A model generated the notes under the pieces. The model was not told where the DNA came from and made no database searches. It was given only the letters and a program-made list of their open reading frames with translations. Made by a program: the position numbers and the translations under genes. 64,000 nt of DNA from Stenotrophomonas sp. 24(2023). GTDB taxonomy: Bacteria; Pseudomonadota; Gammaproteobacteria; Xanthomonadales; Xanthomonadaceae. Of the stretch, positions 4,120 to 57,413 are shown in pieces. Numbering within the stretch: position 1 is the stretch's first letter; each line of letters starts with the position of its first letter. Location of the stretch: positions 2,011,001 through 2,075,000 of the forward strand of contig NZ_CP133160.1 of the NCBI RefSeq assembly GCF_030913365.1. The letters run 5' to 3'.

Positions 4120-4318
4120 CGGCAGGGCTTGCAGCCCTGCACCTGCTTCAAGCCAGGGCAACGTCAACGTCAAAAGCGGGCTATCCGTGGGTTGGTGGGG
4201 CGGTGTCGGATTGCGGGGGCGCCGTAAATCCGTCCATGGAGGCTTGGCAGCCGCATCCATGCGGCTGACACCCCGCAATCCGACACCGCCCCACCTCTGA
4301 CAGATTCCTGCGGCTGTC
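4120..4318 (+). repeat. Large hairpin element, copy A (left member of pair 1)
   Basis: The element begins with a small dyad (GCAGGGC/GCCCTGC, 4122-4140) and a spacer containing AAAAGCGGGCTATCCGTGG. The main hairpin has a perfect 24-bp stem (4195-4218 with 4271-4294) around a 52-nt loop (4219-4270). The loop holds an inner hairpin, AGCCGCAT-CC-ATGCGGCT (4249-4266). A GACAG/CTGTC dyad follows. Copies B, C and D share the loop but not the stem sequence. No coding function is apparent. Confidence 0.85.
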
Positions 4319-4319
4319 G

Positions 4320-4344
4320 GTAGGTGTCGACCTTGGTCGACACA
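4320..4344 (+). repeat. SMAG-like GTAG palindrome
   Basis: GTAG followed by GTGTCGACC-TT-GGTCGACAC, a 9-bp perfect dyad. It lies between hairpin elements A and B and faces the oppositely oriented dyad at 4372. Confidence 0.8.
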
Positions 4345-4371
4345 TCTGTCAGATATCGAATGAATTCATCC

Positions 4372-4394
4372 GTGTCGACCAAGGTCGACACCCA
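4372..4394 (-). repeat. SMAG-like palindrome, inverted copy
   Basis: GTGTCGACC-AA-GGTCGACAC, the reverse orientation of the dyad at 4320. The two are 27 bases apart, so the pair could also form a longer cruciform or a bifunctional hairpin. Confidence 0.75.
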
Positions 4395-4411
4395 CCAGAG
4401 CAGAATGCCGT

Positions 4412-4608
4412 TCCGACAGATCGCAGCCAACTGTCGAAGGCGGGGTGGGTCCGGTTGCGGGGGTGTCCGCGGCATGGATGCCGCGGCCAAGCCCCCAAGG
4501 ATGGGTTTACGGCGTCCCCCGCCACCGGACCCACCCCGTCATCCCGCAGGAAGCCCGCTTCTGCTTTTGCTGTTGCTCTGGCTCAGAGCAGGTGCAGGGC
4601 GCAGCCCT
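4412..4608 (-). repeat. Large hairpin element, copy B (right member of pair 1, inverted)
   Basis: Read on the minus strand it has the same order of parts as copy A: terminal GCAGGGC dyad (about 4592-4608), GCGGGCTTCC spacer, then the main hairpin. Stem arms are 4441-4463 and 4516-4538 (23 bp, one mismatch that is a G-T wobble). The loop is 52 nt (4464-4515) with inner stem CCGCGGCAT/ATGCCGCGG. Copies A and B converge on the SMAG dyads between them. Confidence 0.85.
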
Positions 4609-4665
4609 GCCGAGCAAAACCCCCCTCGTGCACAATGGGGCCGACCCCGCCCGGACACCGTCCTG

Positions 4666-5280
4666 ATGTCGAGCAAGCCGTATTCAGAAGCCTGCGAACG
4701 CAACCGCGAACCGATCGCCGCCGCGCTGGACCCGTGGATGGGCGATCGCCACCGGGTGCTGGAAATCGGCAGCGGCACCGGCCAGCATGCCGCGTTCTTC
4801 GCCGAGCGCTGGCCCTGGCTGCGCTGGCAACCCACCGACCATCCCGACCACCTGCCCGGCATCGCGGCCTGGCGCGCGGAAGCGGCGCTGCTGAACCTGC
4901 TGCCGCCGGTGGCACTGCAGGTGGAACTGCCGCCGGCGCCGGGCCTGGACCTGCCGCCGGGCAGCACGTTCGACGCGGCATTCAGCGCCAACACCCTGCA
5001 CATCATGAGCTGGGAACACGTGCAGGCGCTGTTCGCCGCCTTGCCGGGCACGCTGCGCCATGGCGCGCTGCTGGCGGTATACGGCCCCTTCAACCGGGAC
5101 GGCCGCTACACCAGCGACAGCAACGCGCAGTTCGATGCCTGGCTGAAGGCGCGTGATCCACGCAGCGGCATCCGCGACGTGGAGGCCGTGCAGGCACTGG
5201 CGGCCGACCATGGGTTCACCCGTCTGCGGGAGGTGGCGATGCCGGCCAACAACCGCCTGCTGTTGTGGCGGCTGGGGTAG
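4666..5280 (+). CDS. DUF938-type SAM-dependent methyltransferase
   Basis: A 204-residue class I methyltransferase-fold protein of the DUF938 family. The SAM-binding motif I is VLEIGSGTGQHAAFF at about residues 29-43, followed by an acidic region (TDHPD) and the FSANTLHIMSW segment typical of the family. It ends with a conserved RLREVAMPANNRLLLW block. ATG 4666 is chosen because it starts exactly at the family N-terminus (MSSKPYSEACERNREPI); the frame stays open upstream but crosses hairpin element B. The methyl acceptor is unknown for this family. It is monocistronic, convergent with the next gene across a 70-bp gap that contains a strong hairpin. Confidence 0.85.
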   Translation: MSSKPYSEACERNREPIAAALDPWMGDRHRVLEIGSGTGQHAAFFAERWPWLRWQPTDHPDHLPGIAAWRAEAALLNLLPPVALQVELPPAPGLDLPPGSTFDAAFSANTLHIMSWEHVQALFAALPGTLRHGALLAVYGPFNRDGRYTSDSNAQFDAWLKARDPRSGIRDVEAVQALAADHGFTRLREVAMPANNRLLLWRLG

Positions 5281-5314
5281 CGGGCAGGCCACCGCCGCGT
5301 TCCGGGGTCCGGCA

Positions 5315-5339
5315 GGGGCGGCCGGCGCGCCGGCGCCCC
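5315..5339. terminator. GC-rich hairpin between convergent genes
   Basis: GGGGC-G-GCCGGC-GC-GCCGGC-GCCCC forms an 11-bp stem with one bulge. There is no T-run, so if it terminates transcription it does so weakly or bidirectionally. It lies between the stop codons at 5280 and 5351. Confidence 0.5.
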
Positions 5340-5350
5340 GCAGAACCGCC

Positions 5351-8300
5351 TTACGCCACCTGCACGATGTGCAGTGCCTTCGGGTTGCGCCACTGCGCCA
5401 GCAGCGCGGCCTCGCGGGCCTTGGCCTGCTCGAAATGGGCTTCCTTGATGTGGCCGAAGCCACGGATGTGCTCGGGAATGCTGGCGATTTCCACCGCCAG
5501 CGCCAGGCGGTCATCGCCCAGCCCGTCCAGCAGCACCTGCACGGTCCCCTCGTAGTCGGCAATCAGCTGGCGCTCCATGCGGCGCTCTTCGGTGCGGCCG
5601 AACACATCGAAGCGGCCACCCCGCAGGAACTTCAGCTTCGCCAGCACGCCGAAGGCCTTGAACATCCACGGGCCGTATTCCTTCTTCAGCAGGCGGCCCT
5701 GTTCGTCCTTCCTGGCGAACAGCGGGGGCGCCAGGTGGAAGCGCAGCTGGTAGTCACCCTCGAACTGCTGCTGCACGCGGCGCTGGAACTCGCCGCTGGT
5801 GTACAGGCGCGCCACTTCGTACTCGTCCTTGTAGGCCATCAGCTTGAACAGGTAGCGGGCAACGGTTTCGGTCAACGCAGTGGACCCGCCGATGCGGTCG
5901 GCCTCGGCGGCGCGCACGCGTTCGACCAGGCGGCGGTAGCGGTTGGCGTAGGCGGCGTCCTGGTAGTCCACCAGGAAGGTGGCGCGGCGCTCGATCATTT
6001 CATCCAGCGAGCGCGACAGGCGCGCGTCGTCCAGCGGCAGGAACGCCACCTCGCCACCATGCGAAGGCAGGCCGCGCAGTTCGCGTTCGTCACCGGTGTT
6101 GCGCGGGGCGGCGGTGGCGCCCCATTCGTTGCCTTCCCACTCGCCCGGCGGCAGCGGATGCAGCGGGCCCGGGGTGGATTCGGTATCGGTGTGGCGGTTG
6201 CGTACCAGGCCGGCCGCTTCCTGCACGGCCTGCGGATCGACCACCGCCAGGCGGCCCCAGGCGAAGGCCTGCTGGTTCATGGCCACCGCCGCGCCATTGA
6301 GTTCGATCGCGCGCATCAGAGCCTCGAACGACAGCGGCACCAGGCCCTGCTGCCAGGCATAGCCCAGGATGAACAGGTTGGCGGCGATGGCATCGCCCAG
6401 CAGTGCGGTGGCCAGCTGGGTGGCATCGAGCAGCAGCGGCTCCTGTCCGCCCAGTGCCACGCGCACGCCGGCGATGATGTCCGCCGCCGGGAACTGCATG
6501 TCCGGCCGCGTGGTGAAGGTGCCCGGCATCGCTTCATAGGTGTTCAGCACCACCTGCGAACGGCCCGCGCGCACCTTCGACAGCGCCCAGTAATCGTTCA
6601 CCACCACCATGTCGCAGCCCAGCACCAGGTCGGCCTCGCCGGCGGCGATGCGCACGGCGTGGATGTCATCCGGGCGGCGCGCGATGCGGATGTGGGTGGT
6701 CACCGCGCCGCCCTTCTGTGCCAGGCCGGTCTGGTCGAGCACGGTCGCGCCCTTGCCTTCCAGGTGGCCGGCCATGCCCAGCAGCGCGCCGATGGTGACC
6801 ACGCCGGTACCGCCGACGCCGGTGATCAGGATGTTCCAGGGCTGTTCCAGCGTGCCGCGGATGGCCGGTGCCGGCAGGTTGTCCAGCAGGGTGGACGCGT
6901 CGCGCTTGCTGCCCTTGCGCGGCTTGCCGCCGTGCACGGTGACAAAGCTCGGGCAGAACCCGTTCACGCACGAATAGTCCTTGTTGCAGTTGGACTGGTC
7001 GATCTCGCGCTTGCGCCCGAACTCGGTTTCCTTCGGCAGCACCGACACGCAGAAGCTCTTCTTGCCGCAGTCACCGCAGCCTTCGCAGACCAGTGAATTG
7101 ACCATGACACGCTTGGCCGGGTCTTCCAGCTTGCCGCGCTTGCGCCGGCGGCGCTTCTCGGTGGCACAGGTCTGTTCGTAGATCAGGATCGATACGCCCT
7201 TGACCTCGCGCAGGCGCTTCTGCACGGCATCCAGTTCGCTGCGGTCGAAGAACTCCACGTCGCTGGGGAAGTGTTCGCGCTGGCCGGTCCATTTGCCGAT
7301 GTTGTCCGACAGCACCACGATGGTGTGGATGCCCTCGGCGCGCATCTGCCGGGCGATGTCCGGCACGCTCAACGGGCCGTCCACCGGCTGGCCGCCGGTC
7401 ATGGCCACCGCATCGTTGTAGAGGATCTTGTAGGTGATGTTGACCCCGGCGGCCACCGACTGGCGGATCGCCAGCGAGCCGCTGTGGAAGTACGTGCCGT
7501 CGCCCAGGTTCTGGAACACGTGCGGGGTGTCGGTGAACGGTGCCTGCCCGGCCCAGGTCACGCCTTCGCCGCCCATGTGGGTGAAGGTGTCGGTGCTGCG
7601 GTCCATCCAGGTCACCATGTAATGGCACCCGATGCCGCCCAGCGCGCGTGACCCGTCCGGCACATTGGTGGAGGTGTTGTGCGGGCAGCCGGAGCAGTAG
7701 TGCGGCACGCGCGGGAAGCTGGCGCGCGGCAGGGCAAGCTCGGCTTCCTTTTCCTGCATCCACTGCAGGCGCTGCGCGATGGAATCGTTGTTGAAGAACT
7801 TCTGGATGCGGCGGCCGATCACGCCGGCGATGGTGGCCGGGGTCAGTTCACCGGTGGAGGGCAGGATCCACTCGCCGCTCTCGTCGTACTTGCCGACGAT
7901 GGACGGGCGCTGGCCCCAGCTGGACGGCCAGTTGAAGAACTGTTCCTTCATCTGGCGCTCGATGAAGGCACGCTTCTCCTCCACCACGATGATGTCTTCC
8001 AGCCCCTGCGCGAAGCGGGCGATGCCCTGCGGTTCCAGCGGCCAGGTCATGCCGACCTTGTACACGCGGATGCCGATGGCCGCGCAGGCGGCTTCGTCCA
8101 GGCCCAGGTATTCCAGGGCCTGCAGCACGTCCAGGTAGCTCTTGCCGGTGGTGACGATGCCCAGCCGCGCCTGCGGCGAGTCCATCACCACCGTGTCGAT
8201 GCCGTTGGCGCGCGCGAACGCCTGCGCGGCCTTCACCGCATAGCGGTGCAGGCGCATTTCCTGGTCCAGCGGCGGGTCCGGCCAGCGGATGTTGAGGCCG

Positions 8301-9037
8301 CCGGCCGGCATCTGGAAATCCTCCGGCAGCACGATGCGGCGTGCGAACGGGTCCACGTCCACCGAGGCCGAGGACTCCACCGTTTCGGCGATCGTCTTGA
8401 AGCCGATCCAGCGCCCGGTATAACGGCTCATCGCCCAGCCGAGCAGGCCCATGTCCAGGATGTCCTGCACCCCGGCCGGGTTCAGCACCGGCATCATCGC
8501 GCTGACGAATTCATCCTCGCTGCCATGCGGCAGCGTCGAGCTGCGGCAGGCATGGTCATCGGCGGCCAGTGCCAGCACGCCGCCATGGCGCGAGGTGCCC
8601 GCCGCGTTGGCATGCTTGAACACATCGCCGCAGCGGTCCACGCCGGGGCCCTTGCCGTACCACATGCCGAACACGCCCTGCACGTTCGCGCCCGGGAACA
8701 GGTTGGTCTGCTGCGTGCCCCAGACCATGGTCGCGCCCAGGTCCTCGTTCAGGCCCGGGGTGAACTTCACCCGCGCCGCCTCCAGGTGCTTGCGGGCGCG
8801 CCACAGTTCCAGGTCGAAGCCACCCAGCGGGCTGCCCCGGTAACCGCTGATGAAACCACCGCTGTCGATGCCGTCGGCGGCGTCACGCAGGCGCTGCATC
8901 AGCGGCAGCCGCACCAGCGCCTGCACGCCGCTCAGGTAGATCCGGCCCTGCTCGCGGGTATACCGGTGGTCGAGCGCGTAGTCGCGGTCGATCAGGTCGG
9001 CGGAGGACGGCGAGGTAAGTTGCGCGGTACTGGTCAT
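5351..9037 (-). CDS. Indolepyruvate:ferredoxin oxidoreductase, fused alpha/beta (IorAB-type)
   Basis: A 1228-residue fusion of thiamine-diphosphate-dependent 2-oxoacid oxidoreductase domains. The N-terminal pyrimidine domain follows GGFISGYRGSPLGGFD. The ThDP-binding region is near residue 469 (GIGCHYMVTWMDR). A Cys-rich block at about 652-695 (CEGCGDCGKKSFC, then C-x4-C-x4-C spacing) suits an iron-sulfur cluster. The IorB-like nucleotide/CoA domain starts near residue 730 (ITGVGGTGVVTIGALL). It would oxidise aryl or branched 2-oxoacids to acyl-CoA with ferredoxin, in amino-acid catabolism. ATG 9037 is chosen over upstream in-frame codons because it precedes the conserved region by a normal distance. 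Residues about 946-1002 form an unusual low-complexity linker. Confidence 0.9.
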   Translation of the reverse strand: MTSTAQLTSPSSADLIDRDYALDHRYTREQGRIYLSGVQALVRLPLMQRLRDAADGIDSGGFISGYRGSPLGGFDLELWRARKHLEAARVKFTPGLNEDLGATMVWGTQQTNLFPGANVQGVFGMWYGKGPGVDRCGDVFKHANAAGTSRHGGVLALAADDHACRSSTLPHGSEDEFVSAMMPVLNPAGVQDILDMGLLGWAMSRYTGRWIGFKTIAETVESSASVDVDPFARRIVLPEDFQMPAGGLNIRWPDPPLDQEMRLHRYAVKAAQAFARANGIDTVVMDSPQARLGIVTTGKSYLDVLQALEYLGLDEAACAAIGIRVYKVGMTWPLEPQGIARFAQGLEDIIVVEEKRAFIERQMKEQFFNWPSSWGQRPSIVGKYDESGEWILPSTGELTPATIAGVIGRRIQKFFNNDSIAQRLQWMQEKEAELALPRASFPRVPHYCSGCPHNTSTNVPDGSRALGGIGCHYMVTWMDRSTDTFTHMGGEGVTWAGQAPFTDTPHVFQNLGDGTYFHSGSLAIRQSVAAGVNITYKILYNDAVAMTGGQPVDGPLSVPDIARQMRAEGIHTIVVLSDNIGKWTGQREHFPSDVEFFDRSELDAVQKRLREVKGVSILIYEQTCATEKRRRRKRGKLEDPAKRVMVNSLVCEGCGDCGKKSFCVSVLPKETEFGRKREIDQSNCNKDYSCVNGFCPSFVTVHGGKPRKGSKRDASTLLDNLPAPAIRGTLEQPWNILITGVGGTGVVTIGALLGMAGHLEGKGATVLDQTGLAQKGGAVTTHIRIARRPDDIHAVRIAAGEADLVLGCDMVVVNDYWALSKVRAGRSQVVLNTYEAMPGTFTTRPDMQFPAADIIAGVRVALGGQEPLLLDATQLATALLGDAIAANLFILGYAWQQGLVPLSFEALMRAIELNGAAVAMNQQAFAWGRLAVVDPQAVQEAAGLVRNRHTDTESTPGPLHPLPPGEWEGNEWGATAAPRNTGDERELRGLPSHGGEVAFLPLDDARLSRSLDEMIERRATFLVDYQDAAYANRYRRLVERVRAAEADRIGGSTALTETVARYLFKLMAYKDEYEVARLYTSGEFQRRVQQQFEGDYQLRFHLAPPLFARKDEQGRLLKKEYGPWMFKAFGVLAKLKFLRGGRFDVFGRTEERRMERQLIADYEGTVQVLLDGLGDDRLALAVEIASIPEHIRGFGHIKEAHFEQAKAREAALLAQWRNPKALHIVQVA

Positions 9038-9203
9038 GGCTGGCCCGGTAAGGATCGGCTGGCGCCCGGCACGCTGTCGCGCGTCGGGGGAGGCGCGGAA
9101 TTGTAACAGTGGCCCCGGAGCGCACCGGGGGCTCGCGCCGATGGTGGTACTGGGGTTAGGATCGGCCGGAGGGAGGCTGTTGTTACAGCGTGGGGGACAT
9201 TCG

Positions 9204-9845
9204 ATGACGTTCGCAGGACAACTCCTGGCTGGCGTGCTGCTGGCTGCGGGGGCGGCCACCGCGTGGGCCGCGCCGGCACTGCCGGCACCACAGGAGTTCT
9301 ATTTCGAGAAGGACACGGCTGCCACGCCGGTTTCGGTGGTGCCGGCCGAGGGCGATGCCGATGCGCTGGTGGCGCAGTTGATCCGGCAGCGCGAGCGCGG
9401 GCGCAAGACCGTGGAGGCGACGGTACAACTGGCAGACGTGGCCATCGGCCAGGGACGCACCGAGCTGGGCGAGAAGCTGTACCGCGAAGCGCTGGCCGAG
9501 GCGCCGGCTGCGTCGGCCAACGGCCGCGCGGTGCGCTGGAACTATGGCTGGTCCCTGCTGCGGCGGGGCGATGCCGATGCCGCGCTGGCGCAATGGCAGG
9601 CGGCCGCCGGCGGGCTGCGTGGCAATCCGTCCTGGGTACCGCCGACCTACGCCCTGGCATTGTGGCGGCTGGGCGAAAAGGCCGAGGCGGTGAAGTGGTA
9701 TGCCGCCGCGGTGCGTACCGAGCCCAGCCTGTGGAGCGATGCCAGCCAGCACGCCCGCCTGCTGCCGGCCTGGCGCGAGGATGAACGCACGACGCTGGCC
9801 CAGGTGCAGGCAGAGTGGGCAGCCAGTCCGCCGGCCTGGCCCTGA
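9204..9845 (+). CDS. Exported TPR-like protein
   Basis: 213 residues with a signal peptide (MTFAGQLLAGVLLAAGAATAWA, cleavage near residue 22-24). The rest is alpha-helical with TPR-like repeats: LAEAPAASANGRAVRWNYGWSLLRRGDADAALAQW and PPTYALALWRLGEKAEAVKWYAAAVRTEP. TPR modules bind proteins, and the leader predicts a periplasmic location. It is transcribed divergently from the oxidoreductase gene. I cannot assign a specific function. Confidence 0.75.
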   Translation: MTFAGQLLAGVLLAAGAATAWAAPALPAPQEFYFEKDTAATPVSVVPAEGDADALVAQLIRQRERGRKTVEATVQLADVAIGQGRTELGEKLYREALAEAPAASANGRAVRWNYGWSLLRRGDADAALAQWQAAAGGLRGNPSWVPPTYALALWRLGEKAEAVKWYAAAVRTEPSLWSDASQHARLLPAWREDERTTLAQVQAEWAASPPAWP

Positions 9846-9931
9846 GTCGTCCGGGCGCGCTCGCGGCGCGCCCGGGCGTGGCGTGCGCTGCTGATCGATT
9901 CCCCGGCTGATGGCCCGCATCCGAGCCGGCC

Positions 9932-10837
9932 ATGGCCTTTGATGCCTTCGCCCTGATCCTGGCCATGCTGGGCCTGGGCATGCTGTTCGCGCGCCTGCGC
10001 GTGCTGCCCGATGCTGCGGCCGAGACCCTCAACAAAGTGGTGCTGTACGTCTGCCTGCCGGCTTCGGTACTGACCTACGTGCCGCGGCTGCAGCTCGATG
10101 CCAGCCTGCTGGGGCTGATGGCCACGCCGTGGCTGCTGATGCTGGCCACCTGGGGGCTGGTTGCGCTGGCGACCCGCCTTTTCGGTTTTGCCCGTGACGT
10201 GCAGGCGGTCCTGCTGATCTGCGTGGCGCTGGCCAATTCCAGCTTCATCGGCTACCCGATGGTGCGTGCATTGCTGGGTGATGCGGCGCTGCCCTACGCG
10301 GTGGTATATGACCAGTTCGGTACGTTCCTGCTGCTGTCCACGTTCGGCCTGCTGGTGCTGGCCCGTTACAGCGGCGACCGGCCGCCGGGTGCGCGCCAAG
10401 TGCTGCTGCGCATCGTGCGCTTCCCGCCGTTGTGGGCGCTGCTGTTCGCGGTGTTGCTGATGCCGGCGCAGCCACCGGCCTGGATCGGTACCGCATTGAA
10501 GCAGCTGGCCGATGCGATGCTGCCGCTGGTGATGCTGGCGGTGGGCCTGTCGATCCAGCTGCGCCTGCGCCAGGAAGAGCTGCGCCCGCTGGCGGTGGGG
10601 TTGCTGTTGAAGCTGGTGGTGCTGCCGGCACTGGCGTTGCCGCTGTCGTGGGCGCTGGGGCTGCAGGGCCTGATGTTGAAGGCCAACGTGCTGGAATCGG
10701 CGATGCCGACGATGATCACCGCCGCCGCGCTGGCGATCTCGCACCGGTTGGCGCCGCGGTTGGCGGCGGCGCTGGTGGGGTATGGGATCGTGCTGTCGCT
10801 GGTGACGCTGCCGGCCTGGATGTGGGTGTTGGGGTGA
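9932..10837 (+). CDS. AEC-family (auxin efflux carrier-type) permease
   Basis: 301 residues, almost entirely hydrophobic, with about ten membrane segments arranged as two repeats. Family features include NKVVLYVCLPASVLTYV near the N-terminus, ALANSSFIGYPMVRALLG in the middle and LESAMPTMITAAALAI near the C-terminus. AEC transporters in bacteria export or exchange organic acids such as malate or malonate. The substrate here cannot be read from sequence. It is probably monocistronic, and the next 540 bp are repeats. Confidence 0.85.
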   Translation: MAFDAFALILAMLGLGMLFARLRVLPDAAAETLNKVVLYVCLPASVLTYVPRLQLDASLLGLMATPWLLMLATWGLVALATRLFGFARDVQAVLLICVALANSSFIGYPMVRALLGDAALPYAVVYDQFGTFLLLSTFGLLVLARYSGDRPPGARQVLLRIVRFPPLWALLFAVLLMPAQPPAWIGTALKQLADAMLPLVMLAVGLSIQLRLRQEELRPLAVGLLLKLVVLPALALPLSWALGLQGLMLKANVLESAMPTMITAAALAISHRLAPRLAAALVGYGIVLSLVTLPAWMWVLG

Positions 10838-10849
10838 GGTTTTCTGGCA

Positions 10850-11037
10850 GGGCGTGCAGCCCTGCACCTGCCGAAGCAACTTCAACTTCAAAAGCGGGCT
10901 ATCCGTGGGATGGCGGGGTGGGTCCGGTGGCAGGGGACGCCGTGAACCCGTCCATGGGGGCTTGGTCGCCGCATCCATGCGGCTCACACCCCTGCCACCG
11001 GACCCACCCCGCCTTCGACAGTTTCCTGCGGCTGTGG
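10850..11037 (+). repeat. Large hairpin element, copy C (left member of pair 2)
   Basis: Same order of parts as copy A: GCAGGGC/GCCCTGC dyad, a spacer with AAAAGCGGGCTATCCGTGG, then a perfect 25-bp stem (10912-10936 with 10989-11013) around a 52-nt loop (10937-10988). The inner hairpin is GCCGCAT-CC-ATGCGGC. The stem sequence differs from copy A but is fully complementary within itself; it resembles copy B. A GACAG/CTGT dyad follows. Confidence 0.85.
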
Positions 11038-11041
11038 GTGG

Positions 11042-11062
11042 GTGCCGACCGTTGGTCGGCAC
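11042..11062 (+). repeat. SMAG-like palindrome without intact GTAG
   Basis: GTGCCGACC-GTT-GGTCGGCAC, a perfect 9-bp dyad between hairpin elements C and D. Confidence 0.75.
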
Positions 11063-11087
11063 GGGCGCTGATCCCGCGTCTGCTCTG

Positions 11088-11112
11088 GTAGGTGTCGACC
11101 TTGGTCGGCACG
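11088..11112 (+). repeat. SMAG-like GTAG palindrome
   Basis: GTAG followed by GTGTCGACC-TT-GGTCGGCAC, with one G-T wobble in the dyad. It is directly adjacent to the next SMAG copy. Confidence 0.8.
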
Positions 11113-11136
11113 GTAGATCCACGCCATGCGTGGATG
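11113..11136 (+). repeat. SMAG consensus repeat (GTAG type)
   Basis: GTAG followed by ATCCACGC-CAT-GCGTGGAT and G. The same 24-nt sequence recurs at 42842 and 57450. Confidence 0.9.
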
Positions 11137-11214
11137 AGAGCGAAGCGACCGGCTTCTGCTCTTGCTCTTCTTTTTCTTTTCCGTGGCTGACCGCACACGG
11201 AAACCGTCAGGGGT

Positions 11215-11311
11215 CGGGCGGGTAGGTTGCGCGGGGGGCGAGCGCCATGGATGGCGCTCACAAGCCTCCAGGGACGGATTCACGGCGTCCCCCGCGCGGC
11301 CTATCCGCCCG
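11215..11311 (-). repeat. Large hairpin element, copy D (right member of pair 2, inverted)
   Basis: Stem arms are 11215-11237 and 11289-11311, 23 bp, with three G-T wobbles in place of Watson-Crick pairs. The loop is 51 nt and carries the inner dyad GAGCGCCAT/ATGGCGCTC. The loop matches the other copies on the minus strand, but the stem sequence and outer flanks differ. A pyrimidine-rich tract (11152-11182) lies between the SMAG cluster and this hairpin. Confidence 0.8.
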
Positions 11312-11381
11312 GCCACGCGCATGACCCGCCGTTGGCGACCAACCAACAGCCACGAGGGGCTCCGCCGTTGGCTGGAAACCC

Positions 11382-51920: not shown

Positions 51921-53014
51921 GGGCGCTCCTCGCCGATGGCGTCATGGGCCTGGCCACGGGCGATTTCGCGTTCGCGGCGGTTGAAGGACTGCGAATACAC
52001 CGCCGAGCGCGCTGCCAGCAGCGGATCGCCGGAGGCGGCCAGGCCCTGCGGCAGGACCAGCGGATCGAAATTGATGTCGCGGCATTCGCCGGTGGCCTGC
52101 GGGGTGGCCGATTTCAGTTCCAGCACGCCCGCCACCCGCTGTGCGCGCTCGGCCGGCCAGGCGTAGGAGGCATCGTCGATGCGGTCGCCGGGGCCGGCTT
52201 CGGTCAGCACCAGGTCCCAGCGTACCGGGCCGGCGGCCAGCCGCGCGGACAGGTCCTGCACCAGGAAGTTGGCGTCGGCCTGCTCGCGCTGCTCGGGGCT
52301 GAGCGGCACGAACGGCGCTTGCGGGCGCAGTGTCCAGCGCAGGGCATGGCGGCTGCCATCGGCGGCCGTGCCGATGAAGGTGTTGAGGCTGTTGTAGGGG
52401 GTGTTGGCCCAGCTGTTGGACCACGGTGCCGATTTGGCCCAGGCCTGGAAGGCCCTGGCCTGCGGGTGGCCGGCCAGGAACGCGGCCATCCGCGCCGGGT
52501 CCGGCTTGCCGGTGGCGGGGTCGGGCGTGGCTGCTTCGGCCTGCGCCTTGAAATCCTCCGGCGTGGCGACGGCGAAGAAGGGCGAGCTGTTCATCGCCGT
52601 GCGCCACTGCTGGCCATCGTCGGTGCGCAGCAGCAGGGCCAGGCTGCGCACGCGGGCCTTGGCATCGGCGGCGTGCGGGTCGGTACCGGGGTAGGACAGG
52701 CGGCCCAGCACGGGCACGCTGCGCTGGGTGAACACCCGCGCCGAGGACCAGGCCGCGCCGTCACCGCTGGCGGTGAACGTGCCCAGCACGCAGGTGCCCT
52801 TGCTGTGCGAGCGGCGGAAGCCGGGCTGGGGCGGGCTGCTGCGCTCGATGGCACCGATCAGGGTGGGGGCATCGAGCGTGCGCGAAGGCAGGTGGCCGCC
52901 GCTCCAGGCGAAGGCCAGGGTGACGGCGCCGACGATCGCGCCGATGCCGGCCAGGGGCAGCAGGGGGCGAAGGCGCAGCAGGGGGGAAGGGCGGCGTGGC
53001 GGTGGCTGGGACAT
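51917..53014 (-). CDS. SrpA-like catalase-family peroxidase
   Basis: 365 residues, shorter than a true catalase. An N-terminal membrane anchor (LLPLAGIGAIVGAVTLAFAW, about 18-38) is followed by FRRSHSKGTCVLGTF with the distal His, a LSYPGTDPHAADAKARVRSLALLL segment and the C-terminal haem-Tyr region (AARSAVYSQSFNRREREI). Periplasmic peroxidase of the SrpA group. Coupled to cytochrome b561 and divergent from an ECF sigma gene. Confidence 0.88.
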   Translation of the reverse strand: MSQPPPRRPSPLLRLRPLLPLAGIGAIVGAVTLAFAWSGGHLPSRTLDAPTLIGAIERSSPPQPGFRRSHSKGTCVLGTFTASGDGAAWSSARVFTQRSVPVLGRLSYPGTDPHAADAKARVRSLALLLRTDDGQQWRTAMNSSPFFAVATPEDFKAQAEAATPDPATGKPDPARMAAFLAGHPQARAFQAWAKSAPWSNSWANTPYNSLNTFIGTAADGSRHALRWTLRPQAPFVPLSPEQREQADANFLVQDLSARLAAGPVRWDLVLTEAGPGDRIDDASYAWPAERAQRVAGVLELKSATPQATGECRDINFDPLVLPQGLAASGDPLLAARSAVYSQSFNRREREIARGQAHDAIGEERP

Positions 53015-53149
53015 TCCGGGCTCCGGGCGGGGGATCTAGGGGTAGGACGCGCGGGGGCGCTGTCTATTCCCGGGCCGGATGCGGGGGAATAATGGCCGCC
53101 CGTGGTCGTCCTACCCATGGACCCCTTGCCCTGCCCCCGGAATGCCGTG

Positions 53150-57196: not shown

Positions 57197-57275
57197 CAGG
57201 CAGAAGGAGACGAAGCGACGGCGCGAACGTGCACCGGCCCGGCGTGGCCGGGGTGGCGGTGTGCCCACTGCTCAA

Positions 57276-57350
57276 AGCTCCCTACGCCGGTGCAAACCGG
57301 ATCAGGTTCCAAGGGACTCTCTCAGCCTGGCAGACCCAGGCACCCCCGCT
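57276..57350 (-). ncRNA. TPP (thiamine pyrophosphate) riboswitch
   Basis: Read on the minus strand it contains GGGGTGCC, the conserved CTGAGA, ACCTGATCCGG and GCGTAGGGA in the order of the THI element. The ends AGC and GCT close helix P1, and two internal dyads form P3 and P4/P5. It precedes the TonB receptor gene. A CCCGG/CCGGG dyad (57238-57252) lies between the aptamer and the start and could serve as the expression platform. Confidence 0.92.
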
Positions 57351-57413
57351 TCGGTGACCATTTCACTACAAATGGTACGGATTTGCGAGCCGCACCCCGG
57401 CGGCCGGCGGCCT

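What the first reader, a model, noticed from the sequence alone, without database searches (positions are those of the whole stretch)
4195..11311. Four large hairpins share a 51-52 nt loop but have different, self-complementary stems
Seen directly: stems at 4195/4271 (24 bp), 4441/4516 (23 bp), 10912/10989 (25 bp) and 11215/11289 (23 bp, some G-T pairs) each enclose a loop of 52, 52, 52 and 51 nt. Loops are alike (CGCCGT, TCCATGG, GCCGCATCCATGCGGC-type inner dyad), while stem sequences of A, C and D differ widely yet remain complementary. Compensatory change on this scale suggests selection for structure, in RNA or as a DNA cruciform, or a replication mechanism that copies one arm from the other. 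I know of no named family with this description, although similar repeats may be listed in Stenotrophomonas genomes.
Basis: seen in the sequence. Interest (0 to 1): 0.8.

Follow-up and report, generated by a model that had tools for sequence, protein, structure and literature searches.

The report
Dispersed hairpins resembling CsrA-binding sites
Four long hairpins in this bacterial genome belong to a repeat family scattered through many gammaproteobacteria, whose stems change freely while staying paired and whose two small loops look like landing sites for the global RNA regulator CsrA/RsmA, although no binding has been measured.

Summary
The four hairpins are real, not chance. Their core occurs 56 times in this genome, in 73 of 91 genomes of the genus, and in many other gammaproteobacterial genera.

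Across 51 copies with unrelated stems, 95.6% of pair cells form a standard pair, against 38-46% with the partners slid (copies were picked for having a stem). Stem mispairs favour one strand: 87 would be G.U on the complement of the CGCCGT strand, 24 on the CGCCGT strand (p about 1e-9). Flanks show no such bias.

On that wobble-tolerant strand both inner loops read CANGGANG, varying mainly at the Ns, with 20 nt between the GGAs in 62 of 66 two-motif copies. This is the published RsmE/CsrA ANGGAN loop. Best reading: each hairpin is a portable two-site docking hairpin for an RsmA/CsrA dimer. Binding is untested, and the nearest upstream gene often transcribes the other strand. No hairpin lies at the 52 of 261 RAYT-type genes examined.

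The parts
4194..4295 (-). Hairpin 1. Strand given is the proposed functional strand; the CGCCGT strand is +. Outer stem 4194-4218/4271-4295, 25 bp perfect; 52-nt loop
   Evidence: model R1 hit 4195-4294 (-), 104.1 bits (by construction, since hairpins 1 and 2 are two of the 51 rows of the model, as L135)
4231..4261 (-). Two CANGGANG loop motifs of hairpin 1 (4254-4261 in inner hairpin P3, 4231-4238 in P2), 20 nt between the GGAs
4436..4543 (+). Hairpin 2, inverted relative to hairpin 1; proposed functional strand +; stem 4436-4463/4516-4543
   Evidence: weak Ysr224 match 4460-4549 (-), 34.3 bits; model R1 hit 4440-4539 (+), 102.0 bits (row of the model)
4473..4503 (+). Two CANGGANG loop motifs of hairpin 2 (4473-4480 and 4496-4503)
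10909..11016 (-). Hairpin 3; proposed functional strand -; stem 10909-10936/10989-11016
   Evidence: model R1 hit 10913-11012 (-), 102.9 bits, E 1.1e-22
10949..10979 (-). Two CANGGANG loop motifs of hairpin 3
11209..11314 (+).
   Evidence: model R1 hit 11214-11312 (+), 88.2 bits, E 4e-19
11246..11276 (+). Two CANGGANG loop motifs of hairpin 4
   Evidence: these four pairs are the only CANGGANG-15-CANGGANG pairs in the 64-kb window
4319..4396 (.). Inverted pair of short REP-like repeats (GGTAGGTGTCGACC type) between hairpins 1 and 2; resembles SMAG/GTAG REPs (label by resemblance)
4121..4140 (+). Small outer hairpin GGCAGGGCTTGCAGCCCTGC at the left edge of the composite, followed by a CAACGTC-type tract (read by eye)
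   Evidence: similar blocks precede many of the 56 copies
4594..4611 (-). Mirror-image small outer hairpin (GCAGGGCGCAGCCCTGCC) at the right edge of the composite (read by eye)

Best explanation
The hairpins are copies of a gammaproteobacterial repeat family related to YPAL/Ysr224. SHOWN by computation: a 25-30 bp outer stem free to change sequence but kept paired, closing about 52 conserved nt that form two inner hairpins. SHOWN: mispairs are of the kind tolerated as G.U on the strand complementary to the CGCCGT strand, so that strand is the one under structural selection, as RNA or as single-stranded DNA. SHOWN: on that strand both inner loops are CANGGANG, about 20 nt apart. INFERRED: the RNA of that strand is bound by an RsmA/CsrA dimer bridging the two loops; the long stem presents and stabilises the platform. 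INFERRED: dispersed at gene ends, often as facing pairs, the copies attach RsmA control (stability, termination, or titration of RsmA) to read-through, convergent or leader transcripts.
For: Family: 56 copies in this genome at 3 mismatches or fewer; 73 of 91 genus genomes at 2 or fewer, reversed-pattern control 0; 65 of 299 order genomes at 3 or fewer; 15 of 299 phylum genomes at 2 or fewer, all inside the class. Structure: 52 of 56 own copies have an outer stem of 21 bp or more; in 51 copies with unrelated stems 590 double-change cells against 168 shuffled, 0 of 500 shuffles as high on any of five measures. Strand: unique single-arm mispair events A.C 39 against G.T 9 on the CGCCGT strand; one copy from each of 93 small clusters 87 against 24, in the same direction in all four source groups: other genera 42:11 (40 copies), own genome and genus 16:2 (20), Stenotrophomonas contigs 7:2 (7), contigs L275-L312 22:9 (26); flanks 47 against 37. 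My stem scoring penalised A.C and not G.T, so it worked against this result. Loops on the complementary strand in 51 copies: P2 = C51 A51 N G51 G51 A51 N G51; P3 = C50 A50 N G51 G49 A49 N G47. P3 letters were in no search pattern. Own genome: 51 of 56 copies have two motifs, 4 one, 1 none. GGA spacing 20 nt in 62 of 66. A CsrA review gives the ANGGAN loop, the SELEX consensus RUACARGGAUGU and bridging of sites 10-63 nt apart, best above 18. The own genome has one csrA-family gene.
Against: No binding or expression datum. In 100 copies (genome-contig loci that passed my filters, rough gene caller) a co-directional gene ends before the hairpin in 64, median 68 nt, and transcribes the other, UCC-loop strand; for the proposed functional strand the count is 58, median 160 nt. 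Single copies between tandem genes show no orientation preference, 19 against 15. The Rfam Ysr224 model is written on the UCC-loop strand. ViennaRNA gives the P2 loop a closing-pair probability of only 0.12 (GGA unpaired 0.97), and in all four folds it closes P3 with one more A-U pair, leaving a 4-nt NGGA loop. On the CGCCGT-strand alignment one of five covariation measures does not beat the shuffles (474 of 500). Strand bias and loop conservation would also fit a single-stranded-DNA-binding recombinase. The conserved junctions (CGCCGTRAA, GGCTYG) are not explained by CsrA.
Confidence: 0.5

Rival explanations
1. The hairpins are only the recognition part of a miniature mobile element: an unknown transposase reads the inner loops in one strand of single-stranded DNA, and pairing of the stem is all that matters.
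For: High copy number; neighbouring copies nearly always face each other (+- 19, ++ 2 in the own genome); orthologous sites with and without the hairpins (L170 lacks both of pair 3/4) and with different hairpin types. YPAL is described as mobile, with target duplications of 3-26 bp and empty sites (PMC2229807, passages). One-strand wobble tolerance fits ssDNA as well as RNA.
Against: No transposase found, though only the Y1 family (PF01797) was sought: no hairpin at the 52 of 261 matches examined. No BLAST match of hairpin 2 in phage or plasmid records. It gives no reason for the ANGGAN loops.
Confidence: 0.25
2. A generic 3'-end hairpin: it stabilises or terminates upstream transcripts whatever its loop sequence.
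For: Median 68 nt after the stop of a co-directional gene in 64 of 100 copies; convergent gene pairs 38, divergent 16. A review passage says YPAL might influence the stability of upstream transcripts (PMC2229807).
Against: The loop is far more conserved than the stem, and the wobble-type mispairs favour the strand opposite to the nearest co-directional gene's mRNA.
Confidence: 0.15
3. No selection: replication template switching copies one arm onto the other, so the stems stay complementary while drifting.
For: Double changes are at least as often transversion-type as transition-type (38 and 15; 21 and 17 among near neighbours), while single-arm changes are mostly transitions (48 transitions and 29 transversions; 70 and 32).
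Against: It does not predict the strand-specific 87:24 mispair bias. The short inner stems P2 and P3 also covary.
Confidence: 0.08
4. They are the published TIR repeats of the S. maltophilia RAYT-like genes (ORFs 1152 or 4509).
For: The '1152' TIRs are described as self-complementary and close together (PMC3733652, passages).
Against: Seven RAYT loci inspected carry GGGGTCAGATCCCTTTCGC-type (3 loci) or AAAAGGGGACGGAGGGG-type TIRs (4 loci). None of 52 RAYT loci has the hairpin core; 5 of the 52 are in genomes without any hairpin.
Confidence: 0.02

Closest known systems
YPAL / RU-2 (Yersinia palindromic sequence); Rfam RF02770 Ysr224
   Same: Same loop: the reverse complement of RU-2 as printed in PMC2759123 Table 1b, turned round by eye, contains GACGCCGTAAATACATCCATGTAGGCTCGAGCCGCGCCATCCTTGGCGCGGACGC. 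Internal stem, intergenic position. A Sodalis copy with the same core scores 82.9 bits, above the Ysr224 gathering score of 70.
   Different: Window copies score 27.4 to 34.3 bits (hairpins 1, 2, 4). Six loci of other genera and three loci give no Ysr224 match at E 0.01. Stems differ from copy to copy here, while YPAL is described as one 167-168 bp sequence. Here they often sit in facing pairs around REPs.
CsrA/RsmA-sequestering sRNAs (CsrB, RsmZ)
   Same: Hairpins with GGA loops on one strand, more than one site per molecule (PMC7652899, passages).
   Different: Dispersed repeats of two sites each on a long stem, not one sRNA gene with many sites; binding untested.
SMAG / GTAG REPs and RAYT/TIRYT repeats of S. 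maltophilia
   Same: Dispersed palindromes in the same genus, often in dimers (PMC2613905, PMC3733652, passages).
   Different: REPs are 20-40 bp; these are about 105 nt, and none of 52 RAYT loci examined has one.
RsmU, RsmA-binding sRNA from the Xanthomonas comEA 3'UTR (PMC7694677)
   Same: RsmA bound by an mRNA-derived RNA with GGA motifs (abstract, passages and section 2.4 read).
   Different: Of 30 comEA loci checked, 5 have the hairpin core, about 1.3-1.5 kb from comEA, and 25 have none, so RsmU is very probably not a copy.

Membership tests
YPAL/RU-2 (Ysr224) | Loop sequence and two inner hairpins | tested here: met
YPAL/RU-2 (Ysr224) | Rfam RF02770 gathering score of 70 bits | tested here: not met
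   No match at gathering score in the window; hairpins 1, 2, 4 score 27.4-34.3 bits. Met by one of two Sodalis copies (82.9 and 61.7 bits). Hence 'YPAL-like', not filed as Ysr224.
YPAL/RU-2 (Ysr224) | Insertion close downstream of stop codons | tested here: met
   64 of 100 copies passing the filters, median 68 nt; own genome (rough gene callers)
YPAL/RU-2 (Ysr224) | Target-site duplications and empty sites | tested here: inconclusive
   Orthologous loci without the hairpins exist (L170, L152), but the junction read in L170 is reworked by REPs; no duplication was established
YPAL/RU-2 (Ysr224) | One conserved 167-168 bp sequence | tested here: not met
   98 stem clusters at 80% identity among 250 copies
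CsrA/RsmA binding element | ANGGAN hexaloop closed by C-G | tested here: met
   Letters: P3 and P2 columns; 66 of 82 representatives have two motifs, 15 one, none without. Predicted folds shorten the P3 loop by an A-U pair and close P2 weakly.
CsrA/RsmA binding element | Two sites 10-63 nt apart for dimer bridging | tested here: met
   20 nt in 62 of 66 two-motif copies
CsrA/RsmA binding element | Transcribed on the GGA strand and bound by CsrA/RsmA | not testable with these tools
   needs RNA-seq, EMSA, CLIP
RAYT/TIRYT-flanking TIR | Flanks a Y1 transposase gene | tested here: not met
   0 of 52 loci (32 with at most 1.5 kb and 20 with about 2.5 kb on each side) out of 261 Y1_Tnp matches in 91 genomes
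GTAG REP | 20-40 bp palindrome with terminal GTAG | tested here: not met
   About 105-nt hairpins; the flanks are typically GGGATGG... and CTTCGACAG..., by eye

The most novel reading that the evidence does not exclude
A mobile repeat has spread a ready-made two-site CsrA/RsmA docking hairpin through the gammaproteobacteria, up to about 126 copies per genome, often in facing pairs so that transcripts from either side can carry one copy in binding orientation. The copies together act as a dispersed RsmA decoy and attach post-transcriptional control to the genes beside them, while the stems are continually renewed in sequence without losing pairing.
Probability: 0.3. Interest if true: 0.9.

Novelty: new variant of a known kind. 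Interest (0 to 1): 0.75.

Why it matters
In the papers I saw, YPAL/Ysr224 is a Yersinia repeat or sRNA without a known ligand. If the reading is right, it is one lineage of a class-wide element with a definable ligand, it would explain what the conserved loop is for, and it would add a layer of dispersed, mobile sites to the Csr/Rsm system. The strand test (wobble bias in an inverted repeat, with flanks as control) is also a general way to tell which strand of a palindrome is under selection.

Tried and rejected
Rejected: RAYT terminal inverted repeats (52 of 261 matches). RsmU identity (30 comEA loci). The facing pair 1.5 kb apart in L249 as an autonomous element: the ORFs between look ordinary by eye. 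Rfam miRNA matches far below their gathering scores are taken as long-hairpin artefacts. A captured-target origin of the stems: in the own genome, sequence outside variable stems is also conserved. Mutational strand bias as the cause of the mispair asymmetry: flanks 47:37 (three largest clusters only). The tRNA search of the window and BLAST in phages, plasmids and E. coli genomes gave nothing; the E. coli search used a Sodalis copy, while a paper's table lists 3 YPAL matches in E. coli (PMC2847712), a difference I did not resolve. Not resolved: arm-copying against stepwise compensation.

Counting limits: copies in the stem statistics were chosen for a stem score (250 of 292), so percentages paired lean high. 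Of 98 stem clusters, 51 (loop 52, stem 22 or more) entered the covariation test and 82 (loop 51-53) the folding test; in the latter 66 have two motifs, 15 one, and one more than two. P2 letters were part of most search patterns; the exceptions are named. Events are unique by cluster and column, not mapped on a tree. Several genome-contig loci come from one genome. That the titles are gammaproteobacteria is my recall; one says only Pseudomonadota.
Full report
WHAT IS THERE. The four hairpins are present as described and fold far better than shuffles (z -5.1 to -8.7). The loop core occurs 4 times in the window against 0.00 expected. They come in two facing pairs: hairpins 1 and 3 carry the CGCCGT core on +, hairpins 2 and 4 on -. 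Between the members of a pair lie short REP-like repeats. At the outer edges of pair 1/2 are a small hairpin (GGCAGGGC..GCAGCCCTGC type) and a CAACGTC-type tract, seen at many of the 56 own-genome copies.

FAMILY. The own genome (one contig, 4.52 Mb) has 56 matches to the core at 3 mismatches or fewer. In 49 of 56 copies the loop is exactly 52 nt, and 52 of 56 have an outer stem of 21 bp or more. In the genus 73 of 91 genomes have the core at 2 mismatches or fewer, up to 126 copies, with the reversed-pattern control at 0 in every genome. In the order 65 of 299 genomes and 21 of 85 genera at 3 or fewer; in the phylum 15 of 299 at 2 or fewer, all marked own genus or same class. Their titles include Marinobacter, Rheinheimera, Methylomicrobium, Moritella, Zobellella, Sodalis, Saccharospirillum, Xanthomonas, Pseudomonas and Alcanivorax; that these are gammaproteobacteria is my recall, one title says only Pseudomonadota. 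Where two copies lie within 600 bp they nearly always face: 19 +- and 2 ++ in the own genome, 22 of 23 in other loci of the genus, 26 of 30 in genome-contig loci. Of the 100 copies, 69 were single.

STEMS CHANGE, PAIRING STAYS. I gathered 292 distinct copies with enough flank, 250 with good stems; 58 of the 250 are from the own genome, 75 from genus loci, 117 from named contigs. They fall into 98 stem clusters at 80% identity. One copy per cluster where loop and stem allowed (51 of 98) gave alignment A1: 95.6% of cells paired, 590 cells with both sides changed against 168 in shuffles, covariation score 0.839 against 0.187, 0 of 500 shuffles as high; sliding the partner gives 38-46% paired. Because copies were picked for having a stem, the first figure leans high. 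The outer stem has compensated changes at all 24 pairs, inner P3 at 6 of 6, inner P2 at 3 of 6. At the orthologous site of pair 1/2 other genomes hold hairpins of other types, and one double change (ATTGC/GCAAT to AGTGC/GCACT) is visible by eye.

WHICH STRAND. In a stem, a mispair that is A.C on one strand is G.U on the other. Unique single-arm events in the five largest clusters give A.C 39 and G.T 9 on the CGCCGT strand. In 93 copies, one from each small cluster, the count is 87 and 24 (p 1.4e-9); 47 copies lean one way and 12 the other. By source the counts are 42:11 in 40 copies of other genera, 16:2 in 20 copies of the own genome and genus, 7:2 in 7 Stenotrophomonas contig copies and 22:9 in 26 copies of contigs L275-L312. 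Conserved flanks of the three largest clusters show G>A plus T>C 47, C>T plus A>G 37, so mutation bias is not the obvious cause. The complementary strand is therefore the one whose fold is kept. It also has the lower predicted energy in 67 of 82 representatives.

WHAT THE LOOPS LOOK LIKE. On that strand the inner loops of the 51 copies read P2 = C51 A51 N G51 G51 A51 N G51 and P3 = C50 A50 N G51 G49 A49 N G47, with the first N of P2 spread as T22 G19 A5 C5. That is CANGGANG twice. A CsrA review (passages) gives the ANGGAN loop for RsmE, RUACARGGAUGU for CsrA SELEX with AC and GU pairing round a six-nucleotide loop, and dimer bridging of sites 10-63 nt apart, best above 18. Here the GGAs are 20 nt apart in 62 of 66 two-motif copies. 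In the 64-kb window a CANGGANG pair at this spacing occurs four times, at the four hairpins only. P3 was never in a search pattern. P2 was in most, but it fits TCCNT in 44 of 44 copies of orthologue loci fetched by a gene and in 143 of the 150 places listed by a search that left P2 free (counted by eye). The genome has one csrA-family gene.

AGAINST. There is no expression or binding datum. A co-directional gene ending before the hairpin transcribes the other strand in 64 of 100 copies (median 68 nt); the proposed functional strand has 58 (median 160). Rfam's Ysr224 is modelled on the other strand. The P2 closing pair is predicted at 0.12, and the four folds shorten the P3 loop to NGGA by an A-U pair. 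A DNA-level reading (transposase recognising one strand) explains strand and pairing equally well, though not the loop letters.

RELATION TO THE KNOWN. The reverse complement of RU-2, printed in PMC2759123 Table 1b (passages; turned round by eye), contains the loop. RU-2 is YPAL, described as mobile, intergenic, with variable target duplications (PMC2229807 passages), with 37-144 copies in ten Yersinia species, 2 in Y. ruckeri and 3 in E. coli in one table (PMC2847712 passages). Ysr224 copies in Y. ruckeri differ in expression during biofilm formation (PMC12112432, one passage). Window hairpins fall below the Ysr224 gathering score; a Sodalis copy with the same core exceeds it. I file the hairpins as YPAL-like, a new variant. 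They do not appear to be the S. maltophilia RAYT TIRs (PMC3733652 passages): the TIRs at the seven RAYT loci inspected differ, and 0 of 52 RAYT loci, of 261 matches, hold the hairpin.

IN PRINT? Searches for YPAL (17 papers listed), Ysr224 (2), combinations with CsrA, RsmA and repeats (4 listed; 10 of 19 listed) and for Stenotrophomonas repeats (3; 20 of 65 listed) showed no link of this family to CsrA in titles or abstract starts. Six of the 17 YPAL papers were opened and searched in full text for CsrA: 0 occurrences in each. The one review holding both Ysr224 and CsrA does not connect them in the passages shown (PMC9029176). The library holds open-licence papers only, and the founding YPAL paper is not in it.

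VERDICT. Family and structural selection: about 0.95. Functional strand: about 0.85. CsrA/RsmA docking: about 0.5.

Noticed in passing
window 57262-57357 (-): TPP riboswitch above the gathering score (67.8 against 54.3 bits).
   Followed up: no
L169 (orthologue of pair 3/4) and own-genome copy C1:1959554: Other GC-rich inserts sit inside the inner loops of a YPAL-like hairpin: one in P2, one (TTGCTCGTGTGCGC...) in P3; the P3 insert recurs at C1:1959554 and in L144. Another repeat seems to target these loops.
   Followed up: partly
G563:C1:94445-95607: Six copies in direct tandem at 226-229 bp spacing.
   Followed up: no
L249:215-405 and 1780-1960: In a Pseudomonas MAG the hairpin sits inside what looks like a MITE with ends AAGGAAGCACTGAT / TTAATCAGTGTTTCCTT (by eye).
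   Followed up: partly
L091, L096, L106 (1.3-2.5 kb): RAYT genes flanked by GGGGTCAGATCCCTTTCGC palindromes, perhaps the published '1152' TIRs; in L096 the repeat is in a 127-bp array.
   Followed up: partly
upstream of many own-genome copies, e.g. window 4141-4182: Variable-length tract of CAACGTC/CAACGGC/CAACAGC-like hexamers between the small outer hairpin and the big hairpin.
   Followed up: no
window 53012-53144: Large imperfect inverted repeat (60-nt arms, 72%, 13-nt spacer), unrelated in sequence by eye.
   Followed up: no
five largest stem clusters: Unique double stem changes are mostly transversion-type (38 of 53), more than stepwise G.U-mediated compensation predicts; arm-templated copying or recombination between copies may contribute.
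   Followed up: partly
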